DNA of 64,000 bases from Branchiostoma floridae (taxonomy: Eukaryota > Chordata > Leptocardii > Amphioxiformes > Branchiostomatidae): assembly GCF_000003815.2 (NCBI RefSeq), contig NC_049982.1, positions 4,361,259 to 4,425,258 on the forward strand, written 5' to 3'. Every line of letters begins with the position of its first letter. Positions within the stretch are counted from its first letter, which is position 1. Positions 11,849 to 60,352 of this stretch are shown one piece after another. Under the pieces are notes generated by a model. The model made no database searches. It worked only from the letters and a program-made list of their open reading frames with translations, and was not told the origin of the DNA. The position numbers and the translations under genes are program-made.

Positions 11849-14800
11849 TGGGAGCGGTACATGAAGTGTGATGGCAGTCCAGACCCGACCGTCACACAGG
11901 ACATCAACACCTACATGAGCCTGTGGAGAGAGGACAAGGAGAGCTCCGACATCAAGATGGTCCTGAACGATAGCAGGCAGCTACTCGCGGTAAGATATCT
12001 TTTATCAGGGCTCGAAATACTTTTTTCTGCATACCTGCACTGGTGCAGGTAACATTGAAAATTACCTGCACCAGACAAATATTACTTGCACCACTCTGAA
12101 ATTAGGAAGTATGGATCAGACTGAAATTGTTCAGGAACCATTGCTATTTTTTTTTAATACTTTATAGGTAGTATCAGTCAATGCAGCTATTAAGAATCTA
12201 TATACAGCTTATAAGACATTCATGTATAAAACCCAGTACAAGGACCAGTGCAGGGTAGGTGCAGGTAGACACCAGAAATACCTGCACAGCTCTAATTTTA
12301 CCTGCACTAACCTGCATATGACCTGCAGATGGTATTTCGAGCCCTGTTTTATGATATACAGATTCAGCGACATCAAACCTATCAGTCACATTGCATTTTA
12401 TTACCTTCCTCCAACCTCAAACACATGTACGGTCCATATTTTATTGATTGATTTTTTATTGATTGATTGATTGATCGTTTTTTACAGCTGATTGGTGAGC
12501 TGGAGTTCCTGATGTCCGACACACCCGAGGGTGAGCTGTCTGAGTCAGACATTGGTCGGTACAGGCAGACCATCAGGGACCTTCAGGAACTGCTGTCTTA
12601 CAAGCTGGATGAGGCCACTGTGGATATGCTAAAGGTGGGACACACTTGATGTATACTGTAATTCCTGTTATTTTCAATGTACTGTTATGTTCACGGTTTT
12701 CACGGTGACGATTGTAACGTGAACTTATTATTACTGATAACAAATAATTCAAAGACGTTTTTAAGGTGCACTTGCCACGATGTACAGTGAACATTTAGTT
12801 CTGGGAACAAGTTAAATTTTCTCAGACCGTGAAAGTTTGGTACCGAGAAGACAAAGTGAATTACAGTAACTGTCAAACTTGTACAGTATCATTGCTGTCC
12901 TACAAGCTGGATGAGGCCACTGTGGATATGCTTAAGGTGTGACACACTTGATGTATAACTGTCAAACTTGTACAGTATCAGTACTGCTGTCCTACAAGCT
13001 ATTATAACTGTCAAACTTGTACAGTATCAGTATTGCTGTCCTACAAGCTATTATAACTGTCAAACTTGTACAGTATCACTGCTGTCCTACAAGCTGGATG
13101 AGGCCACTGTGGGGCAGGTCCTTTCCTTGGTGCTGAAAGTGGTGTTCACCGCCTGTGACTAGATTTTACAGTTTATGTATTAATGTAAACCACCTACACA
13201 TACAGTAATGCAAACATAGTTACACATAATCATGCATACACATACACACCATTGGTGTGTCATGCTAAAAGGTGGTTATACTGGCTATATACTATTAGAT
13301 ACAGATACCACATGCATACGCACACACACGCAAACACACATACACACCTCAGGTTGCAAGGGTTGTTGAATTGTGGTTAGGGTCGTTACTTAACATCTAA
13401 AAGGTTATCAGTTCAAATCCTTAGCAGACCCCAATGTTGTACCTATGGGAATGGCACTGTACAGCTACAGTTCATTTGAATGCAACAAAAGTTTCACAGT
13501 CATGTGCTTTCATAACAGCCAGCAAATCAGCACTATGGACAGACAATGAGGGTACACATTGGGTCTTTATACATGTACTATATATTTATTCACTCTGTCA
13601 ACAGGTAAAAGGGACTGGCTAATTTTGGTTAGAAACGTCCTCTTGGTTGAGTCGTAAAGTTTCGTTTCGTTTATTCAGAAAAGAATCAGCATCGCAGTTT
13701 GTAAAAACAAACTGAATATCACTGATTATGTACAAATTTTCAACATGTCGACTACAAAATATACGTATATACATCTATTAAACAAATTACAGTACATGAT
13801 GTAGAAACGCCTATACAAAGTTGTACATTATACTTCACATAGAACACCGAAGTAAGGACAGGTTGGAGGTCCCATATGTTATTCCTGGGTCACATTTTCA
13901 AACTGGGGCCCGGCCAAAATTAAATTAAAGTGTATAGCAATTTTACACAGATTATGCTCATGACTGTGCTTTTTTTTTACATCTTGAGTGTACTGTAGTA
14001 TTTCATTGTATTATATATCATACATTTTCATTCCACAAGCTACCCAGCAGGGTGCCAGTATAGAAATGTGACCTTTGCAGAAGTACTGAGTTGACATGCT
14101 TCTGGATAGCCACACATGAACATGTTAGTTTAACATATTTTTTCTGTTTTTTGTACCCAGAAAGCCACAGCAGAAGCTGACATTGAGTCAGGGAACCTGC
14201 AGAAGGTGTCGAAGCTGGATGACATCACGCTCATGCTGTGGGCAAACTTGAACAAAAACCCTAGGTTAGCACGAAAGCTTATCTGTGTTGGTAAATTTCA
14301 TTCTGGAGAAACTAAATTTTTCCTAACCAATACTGGGAAAATAACTGGGACCCAAAACGGACCAGTCTACTATAGCTTCCATGATGTGATGTTGGAGACG
14401 TGACTGCAGCAATTAGTCGTAGGTGCCAGATAACCTATGTCGCCCCCTGGTCTCTTTTCAATGTCTCTGAGACAGGTGGTGGACATTTAAATTGGTTATC
14501 TGGCACCTACAGACTGCTGCAACAGTCACGAATCTCCAACACCACATCCTGGAATCTGCAATAGATGGGTCTATCCTGTGAACAGCACTGAAAATTTAGG
14601 TAAGTCTAACCATCTTACCAGTGTTGGTTAGGAAAAGTTTACTTTCTCCAGAAGAACCCAAGGTGGGTATGACCACAGCATGGAGGTCTATCTCCATATT
14701 GATCCCCTTGTTTCAAGACGGAAGTGTGATTCATGGGACGACAAAACTTTCACCACATCTGCCCAATGTTGTGTCCTTGGGAAAGGCACTGTTCACCTAC

Positions 14801-17800
14801 AGTTCATTTGAAAGCCAGGGAAAGTAGCATGGCTTTCATAATAGTCAGCAAATCAGCACCATGGACAGACAATGAGGGTTGTGACTTAGAATCAAAAGCT
14901 TCATATCAGGGACAAACAAAACTTTCACCACATTTGTCCAAGAAATCTTCATGACATAGAACTGTTGAAATAGTGAGTGGGATGGACAATGATAAAAAAT
15001 CTGGAGAAAGCCCCGGATCACATAAATAGAATCTGATGTTAATCCCCTTTTATGTTCTGGTGAAAAAGTTTCTTTTGACGTTTTGATTACTATAGCTACA
15101 TTTGTCCTTCCTCTAGAGGTATGATGCCCAATAAAGCTTGCTATACTTTAAACCAATGCTCAAAATACTTTTTCAACAAGGTTGGTCAGGTGGCAATCTT
15201 AGTCAAATGCCAGGTCGCGCCATCAACATTTCAGGTTGCTCCACTTCCAAGTGATTACTTTCTTCAAATCAACTAGTACTTAATATCCATTATCTTTTCT
15301 TCCAGTTACATGTATGTTTTGTCTTATCAAGAAACAAATAGAAAAGCGTGATATAATATGCACATATGTGGGGGAAAAGCAGTGTTCCAACAGCAAAATT
15401 TCAGGTTGCGCTTCATGTGGCTGCATTTGCAAGTGTGCAAGTGGGTATTTGGAGCACAACTTAAAACTATCATCATGGTTTCAGCAGTATGCTCTGTCTT
15501 CTGTCCTCTACAGGTTTAAGTCCTTTGAGTTCCAAGGAGAAGGTTTTACCTTCGAGCTTCCCAAACCGCTCGCCACGGCTGACGTCGCCATCCGTGTGAT
15601 AAAAACGGCATTCGACCACCTGTCCCCTCACTGTCGCACCTTCTACCCCCGCAAGAAGAAAGTGGACCAGTCCGCAGCCCCAGAAGAGGAAGAGAAGAAG
15701 GATGAGGAAGATACCAAAGATGGGGAGGAGGGGGAGAAGGAGGGAGAAGGTGATGATGAGAAACCACTAGATGCTGATGCAGATGATGCAAAGTCTGTTG
15801 CAAGTGGGAGAAAGGTAATGAAATGCAATAAGATACACCAAATAATAGTTACTAAAATAACTGGATATGACTTTGGAAACAGTCAGACATTTCAGGTTTC
15901 TGTTTATTAGTGACACTGAAAGGAAGTGGATGTGGTTGACCGTTTCCAAGATCAAACATGTACCTAGTTGCTAAGTTGAGTTATCTAGTGTATGNNNNNN
16001 NNNNNNNNNNNNNNNNNNNNNNNNNNNNNNNNNNNNNNNNNNNNNNNNNNNNNNNNNNNNNNNNNNNNNNNNNNNNNNNNNNNNNNNNNNNNNNTTGTCT
16101 GGTATATTTCATATGTTGTAATCTCTGTGCTTATACTGTATTTTTTATTCGTATGATAATGCTCCAGTTTAACCCTCCAGTTAATTATGGAGTTCCATCT
16201 ACTACCACTACAGGCAAAGATGCTACTGGAGGAACCACCCAAGGAAGGAGGGGAGGGAGAGGGGGAGGGGGACCAGGCGGCCCAACCTGAGGCAGAGGCG
16301 GCCCACCCGCCCCTGTACAGCCTACATACATCACTCCTCCTGTGGGGGTCACTATCAAGTAAGGCACAGTTTTATGTTTGTAGTTGTATCGAGTATTTAG
16401 AGGGGAAGGGAGGGGAAACAGGCAGCCCAACCTGAGGCAGAGGCGGCTCCACCCGCCCTTGTACAGCCTACATACATCACTCCTCCTGTGGGGGTTACTA
16501 TCAAGTAAGGCACAGTTTTATGTAACTTAGTAGATGTAATGAGTATTTGGAGGGTAGGGGAGGGGGAACAGGTAGCCCAACCTGAGACAGAGGTGACTCC
16601 ACCCGCCCCTGTACAACCTACGTACATCACTCCTCCTGTGGGGGTCACTATCAAGTAAGGCACAGTTTTATGTTTAGTAGTTGTACTTAGTATTTGGAGG
16701 GGAGGGGGAACAGGAGACCCAGTTTGAGACAGAGGTGACTCCACCCGCCCCTGTACAGCCTACATACATCACTCCTCCTGTGGGGGTCACTATCAAGTAA
16801 GGCACAGTTTTATGTTTAGTAGTTGTACTTAGTATTTGGAGGGGAGGGGGAACAGGAGGCTGAATCAGAGGCGGCTCTACTCGCCCTTGTACAGCCTACA
16901 TACATCACTCCTCCTGTGTGGGGGTCACCATCAAGCAAGGCACAGTTTTATGTTTAGTAGTTGTACTTAGTATTTGGAGGGGAGGGGGAACAGGAGGCTG
17001 AATCAGAGGCGGCTCTACTCGCCCTTGTACAGCCTACATACATCAATCCTCCTGTGGGGGTCACCATCAAGCAAGGCACAGCTTTATGTTAGTAGTTGTA
17101 TCAAGTATTTTGAGCCGAGGGGAGGGGTTGTATCGAGTATTTAGAGGGGAGGGGAGGGGGGAACAGGCAGCCCAACCTGAGACAGAGGCGACTCCACCCG
17201 CCCCTGTACAGCCTACATACATCACTCCTCCTGTGGGGGTTACTATCAAGTAAGGAACACACCCCAATGGCATGTTAGGTTTAGCTCCTGGGTGTTTGGC
17301 CCAGAAGCCAGAGGTCCTGGGTTCAAATCCTCTCATGCTACCAATCTTGTCCCCTTGAGAAAGGCACTTTTACATGACTTTCTTCACTCCACCCGAGTTT
17401 AAAATTGGTTGGGGAGATAAAAGACAGTTGGAAGAGAGGGTTGGGCTCCATCTCCCAATACTGTGCCCAAGGTCACAGTGGATAGCAACCTAATGACCTT
17501 ACACCGGCCTTAAAAAGGCTTTACCTTTTACCTAATAATCATGGTCAAATCTGCCCAAAAATACCACATAGTGGAAAATCTGGTATATATGGACTGGTGG
17601 TATCAATAGACTGGAGTCTTTATTGCTTATCAAATAAATTTCATAGACACCGCTACATCAGCACCAAGGACAGCAACAAGACAGGTCCAACATAAAACAT
17701 TCTCCTACGCAGAGGGACCACAGTCGTGTCGAAACTCCTTGTGGTCACCTCTGCTGTATGGTGCACTCAGATCAGTTACTGACCGCCCTTCATAAACAGA

Positions 17801-20800
17801 AAGCCAAAGAAGGGCCTATTCTCTGATTGGCTGACAGCTGGTTTGTGGCGACGCTCACAGTAACCGGGGGTGGCCCTTCAGATAGCAGGGTCCCCACATA
17901 GTCTATTAGCCGGTTGGGGACCGTGCGTAGGAGGATGACATAAAAAAACGGTGGTACTCACCTGTAATGTCTTTATTTTCCAGGCTGCCCAGCACAGTGG
18001 CATTTTACGAGGAACCCCAGCCTGCGAGGTGGAGCCGGGAGGGCAAACACTGGAGACTGGACGGCTTCACTGACATCAAGTTTGACGAAGGTACAGATGA
18101 AAAAGATACTGTATATCATTGTATATCAGATAGATGTATCATTTTGTAACTGTATATGCTTACAGAAATGGCCTGTGACCACATATATAGCTAGTGTGTG
18201 TGTGGTCCAGTAGTTACCAGCCCTGCCTCTAGAAGCTTTGAGTTCGATTCCAGGCTGTGTTTGATTCCTGGTTGTGTTTACCTCCCCACATGCATGCTAA
18301 ATGCAAGGGTTGCAGTTTGTAAAAATAAACTCAATGGTTTGTATAGGATATCATATTCAATGAATTTGGTAAATTGATGTGATTTCTCTGAGAAAAAAGG
18401 GCTGAAAAGAGGCCTTGGGTGGACTTAGCATGAAAGTAGGTCTGTGTCAACTTGGTAAAAGACATAAGGGATCAACTTAACTTTAGCTAACCAACACTTC
18501 AAATAAGTCGGGACTTGCCCCAAATCTTCAGCTTACTCTGTCAGCCTTGTTCACGAAATGGACCTGTCTACTGCAGGTAGTTTCCTGAACGTGACGTCGG
18601 AGACACGTGTCTGCGGCAGAGGGTCGTAAATGCCGTCATGAATTCTTGTTGTTTGATGTTTATTTCTTCTTGTTTTCTTAGAGAACAAAACGCTAAGTTT
18701 CAAGACAAACACGTTTGGGCTGCTGACGGTAATCCAGGACTCGCACCTGAACATGCCCTTCCAGTCCTGGGAGATCCGACCGCGCGGAAACAACGCCGCT
18801 CTCTTCACTATCATCGCCGCAATTGTGGAGCTGGAGATTGAGATTAAGGTGAAGGATGATTGATTGATTGGTTGATTGATTGCTTCATTTATTGATTGTC
18901 CATATTAAATTTCATGATTTTTATAGGTTGGTTAAGTGAATTAGTAGGATTGATCGATCAGTTGATTGATTGAGATAAAAGTCTGATTGATACACAGAAC
19001 ACATGGAAGATGTTGCGTTTTCAGACTTTGTATGCTATATGCAGTAAATACATTTTCTTACTTTCTGTTCTGTATCACAAAATCGCTAATTAAGAATCTT
19101 TGAAATCTTTATTAACATACCATGTTGCAGACATTTAGTTATGTCTGAATTACGTTGGTATTCACATGTGATCCTCCAGGGAGAAATAAACTATAAGTTA
19201 AGTACATCAATTTAAAAAGACAGCATAGTTCAAAATCTTAATTGCTAACAATACGATTTTTTATCACGAATAAGGGACCATTGGTCTTAGACTATATATC
19301 ACAAACAAGACAGGTGTTCGGTTCTTATGGACAGACATGCACAATATAATAGTCGATATAATTTGTTAAAAAAATTGTGTTCAAAAGTCACTCAAATCGT
19401 TCAAAAGTCACTCAGGGATCAGGCCATACTTGTTAATCAGTTGGCACATGTACGGTATTGGTGAGTTCCTATATCTGTTGGTTCGTGCTGCTGGGCAATC
19501 TACCTTCTCACTGTTTCTAGTAGTGCGGCCAGTTATCTGAAATCTTTGCGGAGGTAGCCAGTCTCTGTACTCAGATTTCAGGAGTGACTTAGCAAACTTA
19601 ACACATAACAGTTCCCTTCTCTCGGATAGCCATGACAGTCCTAGCCGTTGGAGTGCATGGTCGTATCCTACGTANNNNNNNNNNNNNNNNNNNNNNNNNN
19701 NNNNNNNNNNNNNNNNNNNNNNNNNNNNNNNNNNNNNNNNNNNNNNNNNNNNNNNNNNNNNNNNNNNNNNNNNNNNNNNNNNNNNNNNNNNNNNNNNNNN
19801 NNNNNNNNNNNNNNNNNNNNNNNNNNNNNNNNNNNNNNNNNNNNNNNNNNNNNNNNNNNNNNNNNNNNNNNNNNNNNNNNNNNNNNNNNNNNNNNNNNNN
19901 NNNNNNNNNNNNNNNNNNNNNNNNNNNNNNNNNNNNNNNNNNNNNNNNNNNNNNNNNNNNNNNNNNNNNNNNNNNNNNNNNNNNNNNNNNNNNNNNNNNN
20001 NNNNNNNNNNNNNNNNNNNNNNNNNNNNNNNNNNNNNNNNNNNNNNNNNNNNNNNNNNNNNNNNNNNNNNNNNNNNNNNNNNNNNNNNNNNNNNNNNNNN
20101 NNNNNNNNNNNNNNNNNNNNNNNNNNNNNNNNNNNNNNNNNNNNNNNNNNNNNNNNNNNNNNNNNNNNNNNNNNNNNNNNNNNNNNNNNNNNNNNNNNNN
20201 NNNNNNNNNNNNNNNNNNNNNNNNNNNNNNNNNNNNNNNNNNNNNNNNNNNNNNNNNNNNNNNNNNNNNNNNNNNNNNNNNNNNNNNNNNNNNNNNNNNN
20301 NNNNNNNNNNNNNNNNNNNNNNNNNNNNNNNNNNNNNNNNNNNNNNNNNNNNNNNNNNNNNNNNNNNNNNNNNNNNNNNNNNNNNNNNNNNNNNNNNNNN
20401 NNNNNNNNNNNNNNNNNNNNNNNNNNNNNNNNNNNNNNNNNNNNNNNNNNNNNNNNNNNNNNNNNNNNNNNNNNNNNNNNNNNNNNNNNNNNNNNNNNNN
20501 NNNNNNNNNNNNNNNNNNNNNNNCTGAAATCTTTGCGGAGGTAGCCAGTCTCTGTACTCAGATTTCAGGAGTGACTTAGCAAACTTAACACATAACAGTT
20601 CCCTTCTCTCGGATAGCCATGACAGTCCTAGCCGTTGGAGTGCAAGGTCGTATCCTACGTAGGAGTCTCCAAGAATAATGCGGCACGCCCGTCTTTGGAT
20701 CCGCTCAAGGCTTCGTTCTTGGGTTTTAGTGAGACCGGGAGACCAGGCAGGAGCTGCATACTCCAGGATAGGTCTAATGTATCCTGTGTAGATGGTGGTG

Positions 20801-23800
20801 AGGTCACTATGGGAAAAGTTAAACCTTTTGAGTCGTTTAAGGAAGTACAGCTTCTTAGCTGCTCTCCCCTCCATGTAGTTCACTTGTTTGTCCCAGCGTA
20901 GGTTGTTTTGGACAAACACACCAAGTAGTTTCAAGGTGGGGACTGCGGGCAGAGACACATCACCTATTTGTAGCGATGGCAGCAACGGGGGATTCCGGCT
21001 AAAGTAGACATGCATGACCATACACTTACCACTGTTCAAGAGCATATGGTTAGTTTCAGACCAGGAGTTTAACTCGTCTAGATCACTTTGTAGAGTAGAT
21101 ACCTGGTGGAGGGTTCTAGTTTCTAGCATGTTCATATCGTCAACATACTTCCACACAGAACTGTTGGCGTCATTGCAGGCATCATCAATTAAGACAAGGA
21201 AAAGTATGGGCCCTAGCAGAGTGCCTTGGGCAACTCCGCACGACAGATACTTCCATCCGGACAGGGGTCCTCGGTAGCGTACAACTTGCCGTCTGTTGGA
21301 GATAAAGTCACATATCCAGGGCACAAGTTCCGGTCTTAGTCCCTTATCTATCAGTTTTGTGATCACTGTGTTATGGTGCAGCCTATAGAAGGCCTTTGAG
21401 AAATCAGTGGCCAAGATTGAGCAAGTCGTAGATGGTTTGTCTGTAGCTTTGCATATACTGTCGACTAGGCTGACAATAGCGTGTACAGTCGAGCGCCCTT
21501 TCAAGCTTCCAAACTGACGCCTGTCAAAGTCAATGTCGTTCAAGATCCAGTTCAGAGCGAAGTATTCAGCAATCTTGGAAAACTGAGAATCATGTAAGGG
21601 AAATTGGTCTTAATTGGTCAAGTGTGGGTGGCTGAGATTTAGGAATGGGGACTACCACAGCTTCTTTCCACTGACTCGGCACAAGACCTTCCGCAAAGGA
21701 GGTGTTGAGGATATGGCAAAAGGGATCGGCAAATTCACAAGCGAACTCCTGTAGTAGTTTCAAAGGTATATTGTCAGGGCCGGGTGCCTTGCTTGACTTG
21801 GTTGCTAGGAGGCGCTTGTACACATCCCAAACCTGCCAAAGAATGCCATTGAAACTACTTTGTACATGCATTGTGAATGCAAGATGGAAGATTTAGTTTG
21901 ATTTTCCTCACATCTTCAATATCAATGAATACATATCTTGAACACCCTACAGTCAAACCGGACTGGATACTAATCCCCCAAAATGACAGTAAAGGCTTCA
22001 ATTTATACATGCTATCTCCTAATAGGCTGATTTCAAATTTGGTTAATTTGTATTTTGTTTGTGTTTCTGTTGCCAGGACGACAAGTGTTGTCTGAGCCAA
22101 CCAGAGGACACGCCAGAGCTGGACCACCTCAGGAAGAAGTGGTTGGCTCCAAAGGACCTGGTGAAGGTAGGCTGACAGAGAAGGGCTGTTCCATTGGACA
22201 CTCCATAGAGGGGACAGGAGTACTTTAGGGGCTAGATAATCTCCAGGCAGATTGACCAAAATGCAATGCCACAAAATAGTGCTAAAGCTAGCCAAGGACT
22301 CTAGCTGGCCAAAGTGCTCCTGGACCAATTTTTTTTTGTATCCAACAAGTTATGTTAACTCTATGCTGTTTCTAGGAATAGAGTTAAAAAGCAGAGTTCA
22401 TATTTATATTGTATGTCATTTGAAAAAAAACGCCCACCCCATTGTAGCATGTTGTAAGTGTTGACTATCAGAAACATTATTCCCTATTGCAAGAAGGTAT
22501 CACATAATATATATGATAGATTTGGTCCACTTTTGTCTCTCCAGGCCCTGAAAGCAGCTGGGGTGAACATCTTTCCAGAACCAGACTCCAGCAAGTTTGT
22601 CAGCATGACCAAAAAGGTGGGCAATTTTGGTTAAAATATACGCTATGCAACACAAGCTTCTCTACATACTCACCTGATACTTCACAGATTTAGCGCCTAG
22701 AAAAATTCTATTGCATTTTGGTTAAAATTGGAAGGTACTTTAAGAGATGGAAACATCAGTATAACACTGGGACTCTAACATTATTTCTCTTCAGGATAAG
22801 GAGGCAGAGATACTGATAAACCATTTCATGGCCACGACACCTGCCTTAAATTTCACTCAGAAGTCTAAGGAATCTGAGATGAAAACATCAGTATAAGACA
22901 GGACAAAAAAGCAGAAATGCTGACGATGGAAACATCTGCATAGCACTGGAGGGACTCTAACATTTCATTTGTTCTCTTCAGGATGAGAAAGCAAAGATGC
23001 TGACGTGTGTTTGATCTGGAAACATTGCTCTGATATTGTTACATCGGTTTTTGACTGTGCTTTTTTTATCTCTTCAGGACAAGGAGGTGATGTGAGGTGA
23101 AGTTTCATGCAGAAGGTTTAAGAGATGAAAACATGACTGTAACATAATTTTGTTCTCACCAGGATGAGGAGGCAGAGATGCTGACGTACCGCTGCATGGC
23201 CATGACCCTCCCCGCCTTAAGTTTCACCCAGAAGGCTTAAGAGATGAAAACATTCACATGATTGTGACTGTAACATAATTGTTTTCTTCAGGACGAGGAA
23301 GCAGAAATGCTGACATACCCCTCCCCATGTTAAGTTTCACCCAGAAGACTAAAGAGATGGAAACATCAGACTTTAACAAAAAGTGCAGGGACTGTAACAA
23401 TTTTGTTCTCCCCAGGACAACGAGGCAGAAATGCTGCTGTATGGTCATTATGCTCCTGCCTTAAGTTTCACTCGGAAGACTAGAGATAATCACTGTATAC
23501 TGTATAAGTTATATAACACATGTACAGTGACGTTACTGTTACATCAGTTTTAGACTGAGTGTGCGTTTTGTTCTCACCAGGACGAGGAAGCCGAAATGCT
23601 GACGTACCGCTGCATGGCCATGACCCTCCCGGCCTTTGCCTTCTCCTGGAGTAAGTGGAACGCGGAGGCGGGGGAGGACCGGATCGTCATGCAGGCCGCC
23701 GAACATCTGGAGGACGAACCTGTCAACGAGGTCAGTTGATGTAGCCTTTTGTCAAATCTTGTTTAAGCTCTGGATTGTTAATTTGTTTGTTTGTTTGTTC

Positions 23801-25136
23801 CACTTCTAGGGAGAATAGACTAGACTTTCTCGGTCCTCAAGTCCTGCCTTATTTCAAGAATTAATTTTTCATCAAAAGCAGTGTAATTAGGGATCAACCT
23901 TTGCTCAATGCCCAAGGGTAGCTCTGGTTTGTTTGTTTGTTTGTTGGTCCTCTGATCACCTCTACGGAGAATACTAGTAGTCTGGTCTTCCTCTGTCCTC
24001 AGGTCCTGCCTTATTTCAAGAAATCAATATTTTTCTAAAAAGCATTGTAAGATAAGAGATCAAACTTTTAGATGCTTGTTCAATGCCCACTACCAAGGAT
24101 AGTGTGGCTTACATGTAGCTTGGAGGCAATCACAACTTTTGGACACGAGATCGGTATATATATCTTTACAGGATTTGAACCAATACCAGGTTCTGGCTTC
24201 TTTGCCAAATACCACTATAGCTGTATATTAGGTATGGTGCACGGCTTCAAGTGCTTTGATATAAGATTTGTAACACAGTATAAATACTATGTTTCAGGAT
24301 GACTGGTGCTGCTATGTGCAGAGTGTGCGGAGGGCCAAGAAACTCAAAATCAACGAGTTCAGCGAGGAGTTCTCTGTGGACCATGCTGAAGGATCAGAGG
24401 TGAGTGTGGTATAAACTACAAAAATAACTGTTACTGTAACAGTAGTTAAATGCAGTATTAAGTTTTTCCTCCCTTTTTAGTAGCCTGGTTTCTTATTGTA
24501 TGCTCAGCTGTATTCTGCTTCTCAGCAGTTAGTTTCCTCTGTGGTAGACATTGTGCCGAAAGACCCTTTGCAATAGCCTTTGGTGCCTCATGACTAAATG
24601 CTTACTTTTACAAAATATTCGAACAACAAAGTTTTTAGTTTTATACTGTAGTAGTAATAGTAGTAGTATCTGGTTTGATAAAAATATGTATCAAATCGGC
24701 TTTGCAGTAAAAACTGAATTTCACAGAGATTTACAATCGACTTACACTGTAAAACTAGCGCAACGTTATCAATACGACATGAAACTGTGTATTACAATAT
24801 GTACAAATAACATCTGCTCATAAGTTTGTACTTTGCGAGTGCTTTAGAGCCATACAATGTAGCCGCAGGTTGTCTCTTTTCAACCCGGTAAACCTCATCT
24901 TGGAGTTCTCTAGTTTGTTATATTGGATGTTGATCAGGCTAAGATTGATTTTATAACATCTTTCTTCCCATCTAACATAATTGTTTTCATCTCCCCAGCT
25001 GAGGTCCAACATGTACCACATGCTGACGGACTCGGCGAGTGAGAAGGCCCGGGAGCGTATCCAGGCGGCGAGCTTCAGGTTCCTGCACTGTGCTGAGGAA
25101 CTCATCCGAGCCACACGGCTCTTCACTTACTCATAG
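11849..25136 (+). CDS. DNAI7: Dynein axonemal intermediate chain 7 (CASC1), 5' incomplete
   Basis: Cytoplasmic/ciliary protein needed for axonemal dynein complexes. Twelve exons fit with matching phases: 11849-11989, 12488-12634, 14161-14264, 15514-15814, 16214-16358, 17984-18090, 18682-18848, 22077-22166, 22545-22616, 23581-23730, 24298-24399, 24999-25136 (stop TAG). Family marks: WERYMKCDGSPDP and INTYMSLW at the start, LDDITLMLWANL, an acidic Glu/Asp/Lys linker in exon 4, VAFYEEPQPARW with GKHWRLDG, PFQSWEIRPRG, AGVNIFPEPDS, FAFSWSKWN, and RLFTYS at the C-terminus, as in the human protein. About 554 residues are visible. The N-terminal coiled coil (~90-100 residues) is not found. A conserved central block expected between exons 4 and 5 is also missing and may lie in the N gap. 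Exon 5 is one base short, which breaks the frame in this assembly. Four exon edges are copied in tandem nearby. Confidence 0.9.
12006..12346. mobile_element. MITE of the CAGGGCTCGAAAT family, CTGCACC motif
   Basis: 341 bp in DNAI7 intron 1, starting 16 bases after the splice donor. Termini CAGGGCTCGAAATAC and GTATTTCGAGCCCTG, with TTTTAT directly repeated at both sides (12000-12005, 12347-12352). Many CTGCACC/GGTGCAG motifs lie near the ends, replacing the GTGCACC of the relative at 6195. Confidence 0.75.
12866..13115 (+). repeat. Tandem copies of the 3' edge of DNAI7 exon 2
   Basis: The exon 2 tail and its donor (12591-12654) recur at 12893-12957, with CTGGATGAGGCCACTGTGGA and donor AAG|GTGTGA. 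Truncated copies follow near 12985, 13035 and 13079. Each begins with the spacer AACTGTCAAACTTGTACAGT (starts 12868, 12957, 13006, 13055). Exonic and intronic sequence were duplicated together. Confidence 0.85.
13116..14160. other. DNAI7 intron 2, remainder
   Basis: No exon seen. A stretch near 13395-13500 (gttcaaatcc, then ggcactgtacagctacagtt) resembles the SINE body, and related pieces occur at 14750-14820. Otherwise unremarkable. Confidence 0.35.
14301..14653. repeat. Foldback (inverted repeat) element in DNAI7 intron 3
   Basis: The left arm (about 14301-14440) and right arm (about 14490-14653) are inverse copies: ttctggagaaac...cctaacca on the left matches tggttagg...tttctccagaa on the right, and ggtgccagataacc matches ggttatctggcacc around the centre. 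No clear target duplication. It is probably a decayed MITE. Confidence 0.7.
15150..15465. mobile_element. MITE of the CAGTGCTTGAAATA family, TTGCAAC motif (decayed)
   Basis: Left 'atgctcaaaatactttt', right 'gcaagtgtgcaagtgggtat' and 'ttggagcac'. Internally it has repeated GGTTGC-type motifs. Relatives with the same layout lie at 31518-31876, 38597-38935 and 42485-42820. It ends just before DNAI7 exon 4. Confidence 0.55.
15995..16094. other. Assembly gap (100 N) in DNAI7 intron 4
   Basis: Exactly 100 N, the usual placeholder for a gap of unknown size. A fragment at 15838-15905 beside it belongs to the repeat family of 46432-47016. A DNAI7 exon may be hidden here. Confidence 0.9.
16289..17262 (+). 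repeat. Seven tandem copies of the 3' edge of DNAI7 exon 5
   Basis: Unit of about 136-179 bp holding the exon 5 tail (encoding PPAPVQPTYITPPVGVTIK), its splice donor and a G-rich intron piece (ggaggggagggggaacagg). Donors stand at 16359, 16505, 16655, 16797, 16935, 17071 and 17250; five are GTAAGG or GTAAGA and two are GCAAGG (GC donors). The first unit, which continues the real exon, reads GCGGCCCACCCG where later units have GCGGCTCCACCCG, so it is one base short. Confidence 0.85.
17272..17535 (+). mobile_element. SINE-like element, tRNA head
   Basis: Head with GGGTTCAAATCC (box B-like), then 'cttgagaaaggcactttta', matching the body of the element at 946-1414. It lies in DNAI7 intron 5. Confidence 0.55.
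17536..17983. other. DNAI7 intron 5, remainder
   Basis: No exon or named repeat recognised before exon 6 at 17984. Confidence 0.3.
18849..19380. other. DNAI7 intron 7, left part
   Basis: Contains a (TGAT)n-like simple repeat at 18860-18975; nothing else recognised before the LINE. Confidence 0.4.
19381..21871 (-). mobile_element. 5'-truncated non-LTR retrotransposon (CR1/L2-like) with a gap
   Basis: Minus-strand reverse transcriptase in DNAI7 intron 7. Visible motifs: KAPGPDNIPLKLL (near 21790), PISLT, DFSKAF, QGTLLGPILF, the catalytic YVDD (near 21140), and the C-terminal RPILEYAAPAWSPGL followed by RIQRRACRIILG, typical of CR1/L2-type elements. The endonuclease half is absent, so the copy is 5' truncated. 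A frame change between 21543 and 21590 splits the ORF. The 3' end has a short repeat (TTCAAAAGTCACTCA twice, 19381-19420) rather than poly(A). 849 N (19675-20523) interrupt the ORF, flanked on both sides by the same ~140 bp. Confidence 0.85.
19675..20523. other. Assembly gap (849 N) with duplicated flanks
   Basis: The bases just left (about 19538-19674) and just right (20524-20660) of the gap are the same sequence with one visible difference (gtgcatgg/gtgcaagg). The two contig ends probably overlap, so the gap may be false. Confidence 0.85.
22795..23580 (+). repeat. Array of six decayed copies of the 5' edge of DNAI7 exon 10
   Basis: Copies begin at 22795, 22982, 23078, 23163, 23292 and 23416, before the genuine exon at 23581. 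Each has a pyrimidine tract plus CAG acceptor followed by a variant of GATGAGGAGGCAGAGATGCT. The fourth keeps the first ~57 bases of the exon almost unchanged. They then run into a common spacer (agtttcacccagaaggctt, aagagatgaaaacat). The copies contain stops or lose frame, so they are unlikely to be used as full exons. Confidence 0.85.
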
Positions 25137-25237
25137 ACAACTATCTACCCCCTGAATTAATGGTTGGGTCTGTTTCTGACATTCTATCAGCTGTATGGTG
25201 GGCTATTCCATCAGAACAATAGGGAGGGTAATTTAAA

Positions 25238-25390
25238 ATTACAAACTTCATGTTCCTGCACTGTGCCAGGGAGCTCATCCGGGCCACAAGGTTCTACACT
25301 TACTCATAAACACCTATCCCCCTTGAATAAATGGTTGGGTCCATTTCTGACATTCCATCAGCTGTGTAGTGGGCTATTACATTAGGAGAA
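25238..25390 (+). repeat. Copy of the DNAI7 terminal exon end and 3' flank
   Basis: Repeats 25068-25215: the phrases TTCATGTTCCTGCACTGTGC, GAGCTCATCCGGGCCACA and ACTTACTCATAA match the last coding bases, stop and start of the 3' UTR. A tandem duplication across the gene end. Confidence 0.85.
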
Positions 25391-25961
25391 TGGGAAGGAT
25401 GATTTGATTGATGAATTATAGGATACTGGGGTGAAATGGAGTGTGTATACATTGCTGGAAATTAGATTTAGTGTACAGTTTAAGAGATATGTTTTCCCAG
25501 TTACAAACTCTTCTCACCATCAAGTTCTTGTGTTTGTTACTGTAACAGTAACAGTAACATGTACATACTAGTAAGCTTAACACCTGCAACAGCTTAATTT
25601 TGGGGTGTTGGAGAGGGGTTGTTATTTGAGAACTTCAAGTGAGTTTTTATTATAAGAAGTTTGCAGACGGACGTATTGTGATCGATCGTAACAAAGCACT
25701 GCTGTAAGAGAATTCAGTGTATATGCTATGTGGACATATAGATGTATGTCATTATTCTACTGAAGCTTAATGTTAATAGCACATTATTAACACATGTAAA
25801 TGTAGTTTCAGAAGTAGTAAGTTCAATTGTCAAGCTGTTAATTGACTTAATTGCTGTGGAGATGTTTATATTCAGAACATTGTGATATTGATATTCTATA
25901 ATATTTACTGAAAGTTGAATTCTTGAGTTGAAGTTTATACTGCTTGCCTGACTTGGATGTA

Positions 25962-29639: not shown

Positions 29640-29673
29640 AAAGCCAATTGTCAACATTTGATACGAATCATCC

Positions 29674-32600
29674 TCATAACCCGGCATGTTTCCTGTTACA
29701 GGTAAGGTTCTTCTTCATCTCGAAGTACCAGTCGAAGCGAGCCAGCGCATACTCCAGGAACCCGAAGCTTATGTGGCTCATGTAGGCCTGTGCTATGGAC
29801 CACAGGCTCCACCAGTAGTGGGACACCAGCGCGAACCTCTCAACCTCCTGTAGTATCGCATCCCGGTCGGCGGAGACATCGCCGCTCTCCGAGAGGTAGG
29901 CCTCGATGAGATGGAGCTGCTGCTTCCGCGAGGGCCAGGCCAGGCGGTCGATGGTGAAGTGAGGCCACTTGGGGTGTGTGTAGTCCATGGCCCACTCGCA
30001 GAAGTGGTTAGCGAACTCGCAGCCGCGGTAGTTGTAGGCGCTGTACTCGTAGTCGATGACGGTGACCCTGTCGTCGGTGGGGGCCGCCCCGTCCTTGTCG
30101 TCCACTAGGATGTTCCCCTCTTGCAGGTCGTTGTGGCAGAAGACAACAGGGGAGTGGGTGTCTTCTATCAGCCTGGGAGGGTCAGAATAGGAGACATGAA
30201 GTATTAAGTCTATCAGACAATGCGAAAATGCTTAATTATACAGTCAGGCTTTTCATTTGACGTCATCTACGTAATGTTGGATTACAGTGCACATCTGTAA
30301 AATGCACCAGGATGTTCCTCTCCTGCAGGTCGTTGTGGCAGAAGACAACAGGAGAGTGGGTATCTTCTATCAGTCTGGGCGGGGAGTCAGAAATGGAGAC
30401 ATCAAGTTTTAAGTTTATCACACAATGTGAAAATGCTTAATATACGCCTGCTTTTCATTTGATGTCATCAGCGCCATGTCGGATTATAGTGCACATCTGC
30501 AAAATGCATGAAGATGCTACTGCTCAATCCAAGTACATGCCAACATGGTCGGTAAGGTATTCAAATTAATACAGGGTTTACAGGGTCTGGGAAACTGTTT
30601 GTGACTTTGTTTTTGTGAATATATTTTGTGACTATCCAAAGAAAGAAAATTTTTAGGAATCTGATTAAAAAGATAAGCTTTGGGCTGTCAAACTACATTT
30701 TTGAACCCCAATTATCATCCTTCGTAATTGTGACATTTCTGGAGGAAAAAGCTCCCTCTACCAACCTGAGAATGAACTGCAGCTCTGCTTCCAGGTTGTA
30801 AGACAGGAGCTGCTTCAGCTGCTGAGACTTGGTCTCGTCCTTGAAGGAGATGTTGTTCAGGATGTTGCTGAGGTAGCTGCAAACAAGAGAAGACAAAAAA
30901 TATTATTAAGAACGAATCAAAGCCAGAAATGATTTGTATGTGTCACTCACAGCTTTACTGAGAGCTATTGATCACAACTGAATGCGCAACAAAGCCAGAA
31001 ACCAATATACATTTTTGCAAAAACAGGACAAATTACACCATAAGCAGTTGCTTGAGTATGGCAATCTTATTACCTGAATGTCTAGCCTTCATCAACAAGA
31101 ATTGTTGAAATTGCAGACTGCATTGATTATAACTTTGTAGGAAAAAAATGTAGAAACAACTTGCTATTTACCAACTATACTGAAGCTAAACCAGCTTTCA
31201 TATTAGCAGAAATTCATATTGATAATAATCATCATGCCAGGCTTTATAGATACAAAGGAAAGTATTAATAAGGATTTTGCATTGGTACTAAAATCATTAC
31301 CTTCGCCTACAAACATGTCAACCAGCGAACGCACCTTTTTAAGTGCTCAGTGAGCCACTTGGGTTCCTTACACAGAGGCATCTCCAGTCTGTGGAGCCGA
31401 GCCATCTTCCGCCCGATGATCGCAGACAGGGTGGGGTTGGACAAGTCTGCTGTGGTCAGGGTTCGGGATTCCTGTGGTATGGAAGAATAACAAAGAGTCA
31501 TTCTTGTGTCATACATTAGTATTCCAAATACTGTTTTCAGCCAAGTTGCCCAGGTGGCAACCTTAGTTTAAAGCCAGGTTGCACCGTCAACAATTCAGGT
31601 TGCCCCACTTCCAAGTTATTACTTTCTTCACATCAGCTTAGTTTATCCATTATCGTTTCTTCTAGTTACATTATACAATGGAACTAGATTACATTATACA
31701 ATGTAACTACATTTTATCCCAAAAAAATAAATACACATAGGTAGGGGACAAGCAGTGTTCCCATTGCAAAATTTCAGGTTGCTCACTGCGCTACCTGGGT
31801 TCAAAATAAAGTTGCACCAATCAAAATGTGGTTGCACTTGCAAGTGTGCAAGTGCTTATTTTGAGCACTGTACTTAGCACATGTAGCTGTACATATTCTC
31901 ACTGTCTATATCACTCTGACTCATTCAGTGTCTCATTGACACTATCACTCACTCTCTCACTCCGAAGGAACATCCATTGGCATAATACCGGCAGTGATAC
32001 TTATACCGGCTAATAACGTAAACGATGAATTTTCGGTGATACCACTAACCTTTAAACGCGAATTTCCGAGGTATGCACACTTCAGACATCCACGTATTTC
32101 AAACATTTTCAAAAAGGCTTCGATAACAGTGCATTCGAAGACAACAAGGCCAAAAGTTTTCAGTTCATTTTCGGGGCAGCCGAGCTCGTCGTGGGATGAA
32201 CACACTGTCACGTTCATCGCAAGAACCGTTGCATTATCGCCCGGATCTACGGCTGAATGGGTCAAATTGAACGTATGCCTCCATTTTCCCGCCATTTTTA
32301 ATGCTACGCCAGCAGTAAAGTTTTACGTCATAGCGGTTGTGACGGACCAAAATTAAATGAAAATTCTTGATAGTATACGCCCATTTTCTCATGACTTTTT
32401 GTATGCTCACGCAGGTTTTTGTTTTGTGCAATTACTAACAGAAAAGGAAGGAACAACAGAGGATGTATAACTATAAAGGTACTAGTACATAGCGGCTGTT
32501 AATTGTGCCATGTTTCGTTCTGCCAGTATTATTGCACCCCCTTCCAACCACACGCCCGTTCTCCGTGCAATTCCGCAGTGTGTTCCAATTACGATATCAT

Positions 32601-44000: not shown

Positions 44001-45872
44001 GTGGATGCTCTCTCAAACGTCTGACCATTTCCAAAACCATATCCAGTTGCTTGAGTTACTCAGCATCTTGGTGTATCTAAATACACATTATGTACCTTCT
44101 AACCTTCATCAATGCAACATTCCTCCTCTGTTTCCCCCACAGCCCCTCCCCTCTCCATGAGGGACTGGAAGCTCCCAGGAATGAGGTCAGACTCACCCTC
44201 GGGGCGGACGAAGACCGTGTCCTCCCTGGAGCATCAGAACCTGCCCCCCACCCCCCTGGGGGGTCTCCGGCTGGCGGGGGAGGCGCTGCACGTGTTCCGC
44301 CCCCTGGTGTACCTGTCCTCGCTGGCTGTGTGCGGGCGGTCGTCATGGAAACCATGGCTGCTGTCCTTCCTGACGGATGTCTCCAGGTAAACTTCTTCTT
44401 CTATTACACATGCATGCAACCGTAACTTAGAACTTTTGCAAGGCGTTTTTAAGAAGCTTTTTTTTCATCTGTCCTGGCGCTGATGGGAGACATCTGACAT
44501 TCTAAACATACGTTTTTCTACGTCTTTAGGTAAACTGTAGAAAAAGAGCATGGTTAAACACAGAAATGTAGAACTTTTGGCAGATGTTTTTAAGAAGCTG
44601 AACTGAACTGAAAGAGTATGTTATTTTTTTCTGTCCCTCCAACCTAGCTCTGATGGGAGACATCTGACATTCTTTACATAAGTTGCTCAAGTTTCAAAGA
44701 TAAACTGTAGAAAAAGAGCATGGTCACACTCAAACTCAAAAATTTATAGTTTAGGAAGGCGTTTTTAAGAAGCTGAAAGCACTTTTTCCTTCTGTCCCCC
44801 CAGTCTGGCCCTGATGGGAGACACGAAGGACCTGAACCTGCTGGAGAAAGCTGAGCTGAAGAGACGCTCGCTCGTGCTGCTCTTCTACATCCTCAGGTCT
44901 CCCTTCTACGACAAATATGCACAGTAAGTCAAATATTATAAATTTTTTTTTTACTCTTGTAGCCTGGTATTCAGCCGTATTGTAGCTCCCGAGTCTCTTC
45001 TGTCCTCTCTGCAAATATCAAAGGATTTTTACAGACGACAGAGGAGACTTGGAAGATGATACAACTGGATGCCAGGCTACTACTCTAATTCTTTAAACAT
45101 AGTAAAATGCCTACCCACAATTTCAAGCTTTTGATTAGTCCTGTGTCCCTTCTCAAGTTGGAATGACCAGAAGGCTATGTCACATGACCTGAACATAAAA
45201 GTGCACGGCAGTAGGTGCCACTTGAGGGTGAAAGTATGGGAGTCCCAATAAGCTAACTCAGGCTATTCACACAGACCTTCCTGTAATCAGCTAAATTGAA
45301 TTAACCAGCTTAAGTACAAAGAAAACAGGATGTTAGGCTTCCATCTTGATCAAGTCATCCAGATGGTAAATGTTTGTCCTTTCCTCCTAGTTCATTTCCT
45401 CACTACATGTAACATAATTATTTCTGCAGGGCAAAGATCATCCTTTTCCTGAGGCTCCTGGCCAGCACAGTGCCTGGTGTGGGACTCATTATCGGTGAGT
45501 AACTCTCTGAAATATTAATTCCCAGTGATACCTTTTTGAATATTGAATCTGATCTGCTGTGTGCCACTTCAAAGAATGCACTTTGCATTTTTGAGGAACA
45601 CTTAACTTCAAGTGAGGTGCAGATAGACGTCAGACATACCAGCTCCAGGCATCACAATAGTTTGTATTTGTGTTTCAAAGAGAAAGTTTGCATCCTACTG
45701 GAACTTGGGGGAGAGTTTGATTTGGCTATTCCTTTTGAAATACGATGATTGTTCAATTGATTGACTGGTTGATTGATTGATTGATTTTTGTCCTATTTCT
45801 TCCTCTCCAGAGCCCCTGATTGGGTACCTTCCTAACTGGCAGAGGACATATTTCTACAACTGGGGAACGTAA
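41071..45872 (+). CDS. PEX16: Peroxisomal membrane biogenesis protein PEX16
   Basis: Peroxisome membrane protein that recruits PEX3 and membrane proteins during peroxisome formation. Ten exons with agreeing phases: 41071-41248, 41567-41602, 41956-42032, 42303-42436, 43013-43136, 43432-43564, 44143-44386, 44804-44923, 45430-45494, 45811-45872 (stop TAA); 390 residues against about 340 in human, the extra lying in the variable middle. Family marks: [118 protein letters not shown], and the C-terminal [18 protein letters not shown] at 41071 sits in a good context (CAGCATGG), and the next residues fit the family start. The 5' edge of exon 8 is copied twice in the preceding intron. Confidence 0.95.
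42485..42820. mobile_element. MITE of the CAGTGCTTGAAATA family in PEX16 intron 4
   Basis: Starts GTGCTTGACATACCCACTTG and ends AAGTATTTCAAGCACT. Flanks ACATTCTA (42477-42484) and GCATTCTA (42821-42828) form an 8-bp duplication with one change. Repeated GGTTGC/GCAACC-like motifs inside. This is the best-preserved ends of the family. Confidence 0.7.
43573..43700. repeat. GGA/GGAT-rich simple repeat
   Basis: Degenerate (GGAT)n and (GGGA)n just after the donor of PEX16 exon 6. Minus-strand frames here are artefacts. Confidence 0.8.
43973..44085 (+). mobile_element. Fragment of the repeat family of 46432-47016
   Basis: Reads cttcagtgtctttgac, then 'cgtctgaccatttccaaaac' and 'catatccagttgcttgag'. 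Same order as the right arm of 46432-47016, with a broken ribozyme-like core. Lies directly before PEX16 exon 7. Confidence 0.6.
44440..44803 (+). repeat. Tandem copies of the 5' edge of PEX16 exon 8
   Basis: Two decayed copies, near 44470-44500 and 44630-44665, of CTGATGGGAGACA with its upstream pyrimidine-rich intron precede the real exon at 44804. They share a spacer (aaactgtagaaaaagagcat; gtttttaagaagctg). The acceptor AG is lost or moved in the copies. Confidence 0.8.
44960..45079. mobile_element. Short MITE, TAGCCTGG termini
   Basis: 120 bp with left TAGCCTGGTATTCAGCCGTA and right end ...CTGGATGCCAGGCTA, approximately inverse. Flanks TTACTCTTG and CTACTCTAA share TACTCT, perhaps a decayed 9-bp duplication. 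In PEX16 intron 8. Confidence 0.55.
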
Positions 45873-46420: not shown

Positions 46421-46431
46421 ATTATCCTGAC

Positions 46432-47016: not shown

Positions 47017-47027
47017 ATTATCCTGAC

Positions 47028-49250: not shown

Positions 49251-49997
49251 AAAGTCGAATGTAAAATTTTAGGGTTTTGCCATGATAAGAAAAGGGTTGA
49301 TAAATCTTTTGAAAACAAATGAAAATGCCAAATCAAAGACTGATGTTAAAAAAGCAAATTTTACACTCACCCATTCAAAAATGTAGGCAAAAGTGTTAAT
49401 GACATTATAACATTATAAATGACAAGGTGTGAAGTAGAAGGAAGGAATGTAAATTTAGAAACTTTAAAAAAAAAGCATTGATAAATCTTAAAAAGAATTG
49501 GAGATGCCAAAATGCAAAGAGAAAAAAACTTAAGTTAAATGCACACTCCCCATTCAAAAAAGGCAAATGTGGGAAATATCAATGACATGAAAAACAGTCT
49601 GAAATGTTAAATTTTAAAGCCATATAACACGCATAAATTTCTATCTCACAATGAGATTATCAGTTTTTTTGTTCAAAAGACTTAGTTTCGGATACTGGAT
49701 ATTTTCAGGCAACTGTAGGTATGCATAAGTTACCACAGTATGTAGAGAATAAACTATAGAAAAAGACGTACATGTACAAACTGTATATACCGGTACCTCC
49801 ACATTAGGACTTAAAACAACAGAAATACATACTAACACAGCTACAATTTTACCTGCGCTTACCTAACTACCTGTTGTATTGTTAAAATTTAAAAGCACTT
49901 AACAGACAAACATACATTGTAATAAGTACTACATTTTTTTTTTGCTTCCCAAGTTTTTTTTTCTTTTTTTAACCCAGATGTTCTGGAAGATGATCCA
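49251..49997. other. Intergenic, AT-rich
   Basis: A loose repeat of 'gataaatctt..gaaaa..gaaaatgcca' at 49285 and 49485. No gene recognised. It is probably the 3' flank of the minus-strand gene that ends at 49998. Confidence 0.3.
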
Positions 49998-52201
49998 TTA
50001 GAACCCTTGATGATAACCGGGCTGGATACCAATCCATGGGTAGCTCTCTACCCTTGTCCTTGTCTTTGCCTTAGGTTGTTCGTCTTCTGCAGTGTGCTTG
50101 GTGGCGGTGGTGGCTTTGCCAGTGTTCCTGTTAAGGAACTACAGGGGCAGAGAGCAGAACTGTGTCTCAGAACTGTGTATTGTAGATATTAGATGAAAAT
50201 GTATACTGTACGATGCCTAGCATGTCATGTCTAAGGTTTAAGTTTTAACTTAAGTCATGCAGATAAGGAACAAACGTGACTCACCATGTTAGCTTCTGCT
50301 GCGCAGATGGCGGCGCCTGTAGCTATCATCAGCACTTCCGCTATCTTATGCTTGTGCACTGGAGGAAAGCCCAAAATAATGACTGACATGTAATGACAGT
50401 AGATTCATGGAAAGTATAGCCTCCTTGGGGCCTCCCAGGTTTGGCGTTCAATGTTAAAATGTCATTCTTAGATAACCACGTAAAGGGTGTCAAAACAAAG
50501 GACTTACAACCTGATTCCAAACAAGATAGACTAGATAGATTTGCCTTGACATCATTAAAAGTTCTGAAATAAACTTTGACATTATGCTGCAGTATACTTC
50601 AAACTGAAACATATTCTCATGGTCAAAACAAGCTGGATTTGTTGACCATGTCCAAAATCATATCCAGTTGCTTGAGTAACTTTTTGGCCAAGGTAGATCT
50701 ATGTTGACATGGGGCAAAGATTTGTAATAAAGAGTCACAAATGCTGCAATGAACTTCTATATGCACACCTGCAGTATTCGAGTGCAATTCCTTATGAGCA
50801 ACAAACGCAATGAACAAAAGATCTACCATATTAGCACTGTAGAAATTGCGGAGAGTCTTACCTGCCAGACTGGTAAGGCTAGGCATGGGGATGGGGAAAA
50901 TCTTCGTGAACACCTGGGCAGGGGGGGCCTGGGGGGCTGAAGGAGAAACTCCATGTTCACTAGTTAACTACACAGTCATGTAGAATACAACTATTCAGGA
51001 CACAAACACCAACAAAAAGCCCTGTAGCTGTCATGAAAAGACATACAACTTGTTAGGTTAAGGCAGCTAACAGTTACACTTATCAACATACATACTAGTA
51101 CCTGACCAACGTTTGTACATGAGTAACTTTATACAATCAGTAACAGAGAAGTTAGTGATGAAACCTTACCTGCCAGCTAGTTAACTGGCCTTGTCCCCAA
51201 CATTACAGTTATCTACCTGCCTGACCAACATCTGTACATCAGTATTGTTAGAAGAGAAGTTAATGGTCAAACCTTACCTGCCAGCATGTTGACTGGCCGC
51301 ACCCCCGTCAGGCCCCGCATAGCGGCCCTGCCCAGGGTTCCAAACATATGGGTGATCCTGTTGAATAAAGAAACAATCACGTTACTCCTTGGTAAACACA
51401 TGACAAAACATGATGAATAAATACTCATACCTCCATCGGTCTGTGCCTAAATCAGCAAGATTGTTCTCTACTGTTGGCAACAACGATGCAGCACAGATAC
51501 TGTGGAGAGGTTTCAATGGAACAACCAGAATATTTTACTCATGAGAACGTTGAATGGTTCTAAGTTCACATAATTCAGACTCTCCGCTATGGAGGCGTCG
51601 CCAAAAACTGCGTAACATGTTTGCTTGTTCTTTAACCATGAGTCCACAAATAGTGTTAAGTACTATCATAAAATAACCTGTTGGCAGGGCTTAAAATACA
51701 ACTCTTTTGCATGGTCTAAATATTAGATAAAGTTAGCGCCCCCTCCCCAACACCGTACCAAATTATGCAGCGATTCAACCGGGTTGTCTATCCAGTTTTG
51801 TTGATGTGTTCACTGCAGTTAGTTACAAACTGGCTTCCCTGGTGTTTCTATATCCTTATGAACGTGTCAACAAGAAAAGACCTATTTTCTAGAATCATCA
51901 TAAATTTTTAAATGTGAAACTCTTCCTCCAAAAGCCCCGAGTGTTGAAAAGCGAAGTTCATGTGAGTTTTCGCGTAAACGTAAGGCATAACTCAGATAGT
52001 TAGTGATCAAATGCCTTTGAATGGTTAGAAAATATGGTTACATGACGTTTATAAAACTTACAGAAGGTGCTGTTGTTGTATACGCTTTGATACTGCAAAG
52101 GTAACGCTACGTCGACGTCCTCTCTCGGGGGCGTCCAAGTGCAGAATGATGAGGTAGTCGCCTGGATCGTTGCTAAGTGCCCCGCGGCGAATCCACTTCA
52201 T
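49998..52201 (-). CDS. Unrecognised six-exon gene, one hydrophobic segment (mitochondrial?)
   Basis: Six minus-strand exons join in one frame with good splice sites: 52062-52201, 51431-51499, 51278-51357, 50862-50936, 50285-50358, 49998-50138 (stop TAA); 192 residues from ATG at 52201. I do not recognise the family. Residues 127-146 (AEVLMIATGAAICAAEANM) could be a membrane helix, followed by a Lys/Arg/Thr-rich tail ending in YPWIGIQPGYHQGF. A second start, Met74, would begin MFGTLGRAAMRGLTGVRPVN, which has the Arg, Ser/Thr and hydrophobic make-up of a mitochondrial presequence and would give 119 residues. The mitochondrial site is an inference. The 3' edge of exon 3 is duplicated in intron 3. 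The gene is convergent with PEX16. Confidence 0.6.
50635..50692 (+). mobile_element. Fragment of the repeat family of 46432-47016
   Basis: Reads 'gttgaccatgtccaaaatca' and 'tatccagttgcttgagtaac', matching 46934-46972, in intron 4 of the unknown gene. Confidence 0.55.
51101..51300 (-). repeat. Duplicated 3' edge of exon 3 of the unknown gene
   Basis: The exon edge with donor (plus strand ACCTTACCTGCCAGC..GTT.ACTGGCC at 51271-51291) recurs at 51169-51190, with copied flanks (ctgaccaac.t.tgtacat; agaagtta.tg). The copy keeps the donor but not the exon body. Confidence 0.8.

Positions 52202-60316: not shown

Positions 60317-60352
<36 letters not shown>

What the first reader, a model, noticed from the sequence alone, without database searches (positions are those of the whole stretch)
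12488..51300. Recurrent tandem duplication of exon edges in four neighbouring genes
Seven separate places show the same design: a block that spans an exon-intron (or exon-flank) boundary is copied in tandem nearby. They are DNAI7 exon 2 3' edge (12866-13115), exon 5 3' edge (seven copies, 16289-17262), exon 10 5' edge (six copies, 22795-23580) and exon 12 end (25238-25390); choline kinase exon 5 5' edge (30304-30508); PEX16 exon 8 5' edge (44440-44803); and unknown gene exon 3 3' edge (51101-51300). Each copy includes a splice site. Chance would scatter such copies over introns, so either duplications start at exon edges (GC steps, R-loops) or copies elsewhere are not kept or noticed.
Basis: partly seen in the sequence, partly recalled or inferred. 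Interest (0 to 1): 0.75.

Follow-up and report, generated by a model that had tools for sequence, protein, structure and literature searches.

The report
Lancelet "mirage" repeats at exon edges
Short stretches that straddle the edge of an exon have been copied in tandem into the neighbouring intron; this looks like an already described oddity of lancelet genomes, and a first count in one stretch of chromosome suggests it happens at exon edges more often than chance alone would give.

Summary
All seven duplications are in the sequence at about the stated places. Six straddle a predicted splice junction; the seventh (end of DNAI7) straddles the stop codon, and not every copy keeps a splice site. 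DNAI7, choline kinase and PEX16 are confirmed by homology. The phenomenon is known: amphioxus "mirage" minisatellites. Placing finished arrays at random gives no excess: 20 of 70 loci on an edge, 16.4 +- 3.4 expected. But an array cannot lie over a working exon, so the fairer count is of founding units: 20 of 63 loci, 6.3-7.0 expected; within gene spans 19 events against 4.3, ratio 4.4, gene bootstrap 2.3-7.1. GC, copy decay and detection explain little. A small sample elsewhere gave 2 of 62 edges against about 1.3, too few to decide. Copied splice sites decay neutrally: 37 of 47 kept, 36.4 expected. Three paralogues of the unknown gene show the unduplicated state. Verdict: new members of a known kind, with provisional evidence of a bias to exon edges.

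The parts
12488..12634 (+). DNAI7 exon whose 3' edge (donor after 12634) is duplicated
   Evidence: exon model; Casc1_N match; PDB DNAI7 match
12591..12962 (+). working donor block 12591-12659 and its 94% copy 12893-12962 (GT kept)
12867..13112 (+). further partial copies of the exon end, about 49 bp period, mostly without the donor
16214..16358 (+).
16253..17259 (+). seven copies of exon end plus donor, about 142 bp period; GT in 5 of 7, GC in 2 of 7; copies 5 and 6 nearly identical
22739..23636 (+). cluster of diverged copies of the acceptor and start of the exon at 23581-23730; 5 of 5 aligned copies keep AG
25073..25405 (+). tandem duplication spanning DNAI7 stop codon and 3' flank (no splice site)
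29700..30172 (-). choline kinase exon whose 5' edge (acceptor, high-coordinate side) is duplicated
30103..30516 (-). two adjacent copies (30103-30314, 30305-30516), about 202 bp, 85%; the intronic copy keeps AG
44434..44823 (+). three diverged copies of the acceptor region of the PEX16 exon at 44804-44923
   Evidence: Pex16 match
51101..51298 (-). tandem duplication of the donor edge of the unknown gene's exon 51278-51357; GT kept; three paralogues are unduplicated

Best explanation
These are 'mirage' minisatellites: direct tandem duplications of blocks of roughly 70-210 bp that contain a splice junction. One copy stays joined to the rest of the exon and keeps working; the other copies lie in the intron and drift neutrally. 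Shown here: presence, identity of three genes, the unduplicated state in three paralogues for one case, neutral decay of copied splice sites, and many duplications of the same kind in introns and between genes. Inferred: that founding duplications arise (or last) about 2-4 times more often per base at exon edges than in introns, and that arrays then grow by slippage or unequal exchange.
For: Units, copies and coordinates. Gene identity. Tandem duplication against three paralogues: the two window halves that meet at 51198/51199 overlap by 109, 109 and 116 bp on the paralogues. Unit-level excess: 20 of 63 loci, 6.3 (29) or 7.0 (45) expected; 19 against 4.3 in gene spans, bootstrap 2.3-7.1, at least 3.6 whichever gene is left out; TRF alone 6 of 33 loci, 2.06 expected, P 0.019. 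Coverage by founding units is 9-10% within 25 bp of an edge on either side, 4.7% at 25-50 bp into introns and 1.5-3.8% beyond 50 bp. Exonic and intronic halves equally alike, 0.897 and 0.881. Splice dinucleotides kept in 37 of 47 copies, 36.4 expected from neutral decay. Literature: passages of PMC3087553 and PMC3902484.
Against: Finished-array counts show no excess (27, 28, 38). The profile puts the retained unit on the edge whenever a copy touches an edge, so its peak partly restates the count. The sample from other places gave 2 of 62 edges against about 1.3 (34, 36, rate from 41), where a ratio of 4.4 would give about 5.8; one of the two was visible before I chose the sample. Most exons come from a home-made model, not RNA. 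Loss of a whole copy by deletion was not simulated; it could favour edges up to about twofold, because the working copy cannot be lost.
Confidence: 0.8

Rival explanations
1. Exon edges are not special: tandem duplications fall everywhere in this genome, and the reader noticed those that carry recognisable coding sequence.
Against: Those array counts give a long intronic array the weight of all its copies, while an edge array counts once; with one count per founding unit the excess is about 3- to 4-fold.
Confidence: 0.3
2. Pinned-copy effect: duplications arise evenly, but at an edge one copy is held by selection, so the pair stays recognisable longer.
For: Expected on principle; simulation gives a 1.28-fold advantage from substitutions and small indels; loss of a whole copy could raise it to about 2 at most (reasoning).
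Against: Exonic and intronic halves are equally alike. The bootstrap puts 1% of resamples at or below a ratio of 2. The ratio is 5.2 among pairs at least 85% identical (11 of 30 loci, 2.1 expected), though a pinned copy predicts a constant ratio, so this is weak.
Confidence: 0.35
3. The copies are functional: alternative exons, decoy splice sites, or introns in the making.
For: Many copies keep GT or AG and part of the reading frame; in DNAI7 exon 5 the copy joined to the exon is shifted by one base while copies 2-4 and 7 keep the frame.
Against: Splice dinucleotides are kept as often as neutral decay predicts (37 of 47, 36.4 expected); the copied choline kinase block soon meets a stop (translation); published mirages were reported not to disturb splicing.
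Confidence: 0.1
4. Assembly artefacts.
For: Runs of N lie at 15995-16094 and 19675-20523, and one near-identical pair flanks the second.
Against: Copies at the seven sites differ by about 6-29% and no run of N lies inside any of the seven; a published PGBD5 mirage was confirmed by re-sequencing, although two assemblies gave different copy numbers.
Confidence: 0.05

Closest known systems
Amphioxus 'mirage' minisatellites (Adh3; globins BflGb6 and BflGb9; troponin C; PGBD5)
   Same: Tandem repeats of a block spanning an exon-intron boundary, at either side of an exon, unit sizes of tens to about 160 bp, up to 6-7 copies (passages of PMC3087553 and PMC3902484).
   Different: Other genes (DNAI7, choline kinase, PEX16, an unknown gene, and predicted genes in the flank); one unit is longer (about 202 bp); one block spans a stop codon; no RNA or haplotype data here.
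Intron gain by tandem genomic duplication (Rogers 1989; Gao and Lynch 2009)
   Same: Tandem duplication that copies splice signals; PMC3087553 proposes it as a possible fate of mirages.
   Different: Here existing junctions are copied into introns; I identified no new intron. Rogers and Gao-Lynch were seen only as cited in PMC3087553.

Membership tests
Amphioxus mirage minisatellites | Repeat unit spans an exon-intron boundary | tested here: met
   6 of 7 reader sites; 20 of 63 loci in 264 kb; exons are predicted, three genes confirmed by homology
Amphioxus mirage minisatellites | Minisatellite-sized unit in direct tandem | tested here: met
   best-pair units 44-212 bp at 21 edges, direct copies at 21 of 204 edges, inverted at 0 of 204; several best pairs lie 77 bp or more apart, so not all are strictly head to tail
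Amphioxus mirage minisatellites | Neighbouring units homogenise | tested here: inconclusive
   DNAI7 exon 5 copies 5 and 6 share a deletion and a GC donor; not tested across sites
Amphioxus mirage minisatellites | Regular splicing is not disturbed | not testable with these tools
   no RNA data
Amphioxus mirage minisatellites | Copy number differs between haplotypes or somatic cells | not testable with these tools
   the exon 5 array was found at one place in the genome; no second haplotype
Amphioxus mirage minisatellites | Host is a cephalochordate | tested here: inconclusive
   513 Mb genome, fetched contigs 19-35 Mb long, fits Branchiostoma floridae as I recall it; no tool names the organism
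Intron gain by tandem duplication | A duplicated block now acts as a new intron | tested here: inconclusive
   none identified in the gene models; the models are predictions and were not searched for this in particular

The most novel reading that the evidence does not exclude
Exon edges are genuine starting points of tandem duplication in this genome: some feature of transcribed or spliced junctions makes founding duplications 2-4 times more likely per base there than in introns, giving a steady supply of spare splice sites from which new introns and exons could arise.
Probability: 0.35. Interest if true: 0.75.

Novelty: new member of a known kind. Interest (0 to 1): 0.45.

Why it matters
Mirages have been noted gene by gene for over twenty years (dates as cited in PMC3087553) and proposed there as raw material for new introns. 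About one splice edge in ten carrying a copy (20 of 204 in this stretch) would make lancelets a place to watch intron and exon birth, and the contrast between counting arrays and counting founding units shows which test is needed. I saw no genome-wide count among the papers listed; that library lacks most subscription journals.

Tried and rejected
The first self-trained gene model drifted to hundreds of tiny exons and was replaced by a stricter one. The footprint-level null is reported but judged the wrong test for origin. GC as the cause: non-edge unit coverage is flat to 55% GC and higher only at 55-65%; duplicated edges are slightly richer in GC (0.499) than edges in general (0.472). Slower decay of exons: tested and small. 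Selection on copied splice sites: none seen. Sampling exons genome-wide through the Pfam kinesin and myosin tables: DNA for those loci could not be cut out; the kinesin table itself shows one exon start in three copies about 151 bp apart, seen again in DNA.

Rows dropped before counting: 20 of 124 predicted exons with score above 7 (seven GPCR-like, three other large exons, three LINE-like, five repeat-coded, two doubtful) were left out by hand after their duplication status had been printed. Five of the 20 (49180, 145798, 150430, 151829, 221503) overlapped a duplication, four of them at an edge, so the omission lowers the count. The 20 kinesin exons were hand-picked from 134 matches, roughly by rank, skipping large open frames, many stops and close neighbours; the triplicate on C2 was already visible in the table, so its choice (L032) was not blind. 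Two of the 20 lie inside the C1 stretch and are counted once (62 edges). The C2 stretch was chosen because of the triplicate and is left out of that count. Near misses not counted: L029 has a duplication that begins 5 bp past the predicted exon end, and L040 a 43 bp piece of exon copied beyond it.

Labels such as GPCR-like, LINE-like, MSH4-like and C2-domain gene for predicted genes are my reading of the peptides; no search was run for them.

Full report
Where it is. The window is C4:4361259-4425258 of a 513 Mb genome in 431 contigs. Size and contig lengths fit Branchiostoma floridae as I recall it; no tool names the organism. DNAI7 (Casc1_N E 6.8e-47, Casc1_C E 3.9e-8; a solved DNAI7 chain, 8j07, E 5.2e-105), choline kinase (E 4.3e-84) and PEX16 (E 3.5e-94) are confirmed.

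Observation. Self-BLAST finds all seven duplications; TRF finds four of them clearly (exons 2, 5, 12 and choline kinase). Six contain a splice junction of a predicted exon. The block at the end of DNAI7 (25073-25234, copied at 25246-25405) contains the stop codon and 3' flank instead. Of 16 splice-edge copies at the window sites that could be aligned, 12 keep the working GT or AG; the exon 2 cluster also has partial copies without the donor. In DNAI7 exon 5 the array copy continuous with the exon lacks one base found in copies 2-4 and 7, which shifts the frame just before a stretch that aligns with solved DNAI7; this may be a real allele, an assembly error or a sign that another copy is used.

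What is known. [quoted passage not shown] PMC3087553 (passages read) describes them in globin genes, cites Adh3 (Canestro 2002) and other loci, reports haplotypes with 6 and 3 units, and says the data suggest that regular splicing is not disturbed. PMC3902484 (passages read) adds PGBD5 and cites troponin C. The present sites meet the sequence features. Papers were looked for (listings with the start of abstracts); I saw no genome-wide count there.

The test. I fetched 200 kb downstream, giving 264 kb, of which 26.7 kb read N. A strict exon model gave 124 exons with score above 7, of which 104 with 204 splice edges were kept. Local duplications (direct, start distance at most 1500, at least 35 bp, low-complexity filters) form 70 loci, 63 with period at most 500.

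Result against enrichment. Footprints of finished arrays cover 14.7% of bases; 20 of 204 edges lie in one, while shifted footprints give 28.5 on average. By locus, 20 of 70 touch an edge, expected 16.4 +- 3.4; 18 combinations of definition and region give ratios 0-2.75, the smallest P for an excess being 0.073. By direct search, 21 of 204 edges and 98 of 939 random intronic points have a local direct copy.

Result for enrichment. A 1 kb array of 142 bp units cannot lie over a working exon: each extra copy pushes the exon aside (reasoning). Random placement of finished arrays therefore overstates the expectation. Counting one founding unit per locus in collapsed sequence, 20 of 63 loci span an edge against 6.3 expected (7.0 by a simpler formula). 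Stricter exon sets give ratios 3.4-4.5; loci with copies at most 150 bp apart give 15 of 59, 6.1 expected. Within gene spans, 23 intronic loci in 119 kb of collapsed intron predict 4.3 edge events; 19 are seen (one edge locus has its midpoint outside the gene span), ratio 4.4, gene bootstrap 2.3-7.1, lowest 3.6 when the largest gene, which holds 8 of the 19, is left out. TRF alone: 6 of 33 loci, 2.06 expected, P 0.019. Intronic and intergenic event rates are alike, 0.19 and 0.22 per kb.

Biases examined. Local GC does not predict unit coverage up to 55%. Exonic and intronic halves of edge pairs (shortest pair per edge, 20 edges) are equally alike, 786 of 876 and 1215 of 1379 aligned bases. Simulated duplications of 110 bp with a constrained working copy are detected 1.28 times as often at edges as in introns (450 trials each), which would leave a ratio of about 3.5 from 4.4. 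Loss of whole copies was not simulated; it could at most double persistence at edges. Exons were dropped by hand after the duplication table was seen; the dropped rows would have raised the count. At least one counted intronic locus (78220-78759 of the joined stretch) flanks an assembly gap and may be an artefact, which would raise the ratio.

Replication. Eighteen kinesin exons from other places (36 edges) and 30 kb of C1 (13 exons, 26 edges) gave one duplicated edge each: 2 of 62, against about 1.3 at the intron rate and about 5.8 if the ratio of 4.4 held (arithmetic by hand). This leans against a ratio as high as 4.4 but cannot exclude one of 2-3, and one of the two hits was visible before the sample was chosen. 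That kinesin hit is a clear mirage, three copies at up to 93%.

Mechanism. In the unknown gene, three paralogues in the flank align to the two window halves with an overlap of 109, 109 and 116 bp, so the window gene has a tandem duplication relative to an unduplicated state. By eye, the two window copies share different small variants just after the donor with different paralogues, which would fit exchange between unlike copies, but the sites are few. No inverted copies occur at 204 edges, against 14 of 939 intronic points, so copying in random orientation is not indicated. Copied splice dinucleotides decay neutrally (37 of 47, 36.4 expected).

Verdict. The sites are new members of a known kind.

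Noticed in passing
window 16214-16358: DNAI7 exon 5: the array copy joined to the exon lacks one base that copies 2-4 and 7 have, shifting the reading frame.
   Followed up: partly
window 19537-20661: Two 138 bp stretches, 99.3% identical, flank a run of N (19675-20523); looks like a gap with the same end on both sides. A similar pair flanks a run of N at 78220-78759 of the joined stretch.
   Followed up: no
window 55849-56894: 99 bp unit repeated about 10.7 times, 95% alike, not at a kept exon edge.
   Followed up: no
window 60322-62385: A pair of about 1 kb blocks in tandem, 87% alike.
   Followed up: no
window 2876-9524: Two neighbouring reading frames on the minus strand that read like GPCRs (no search run), 87% alike at DNA level.
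   Followed up: no
L032 474-888: Kinesin exon with its start in three copies about 151 bp apart, 91-93% alike: a mirage on another chromosome.
   Followed up: partly
flank of the window, joined positions 72175-103377 (within L002-L021): Three paralogues of the unknown gene, without the exon-edge duplication.
   Followed up: yes
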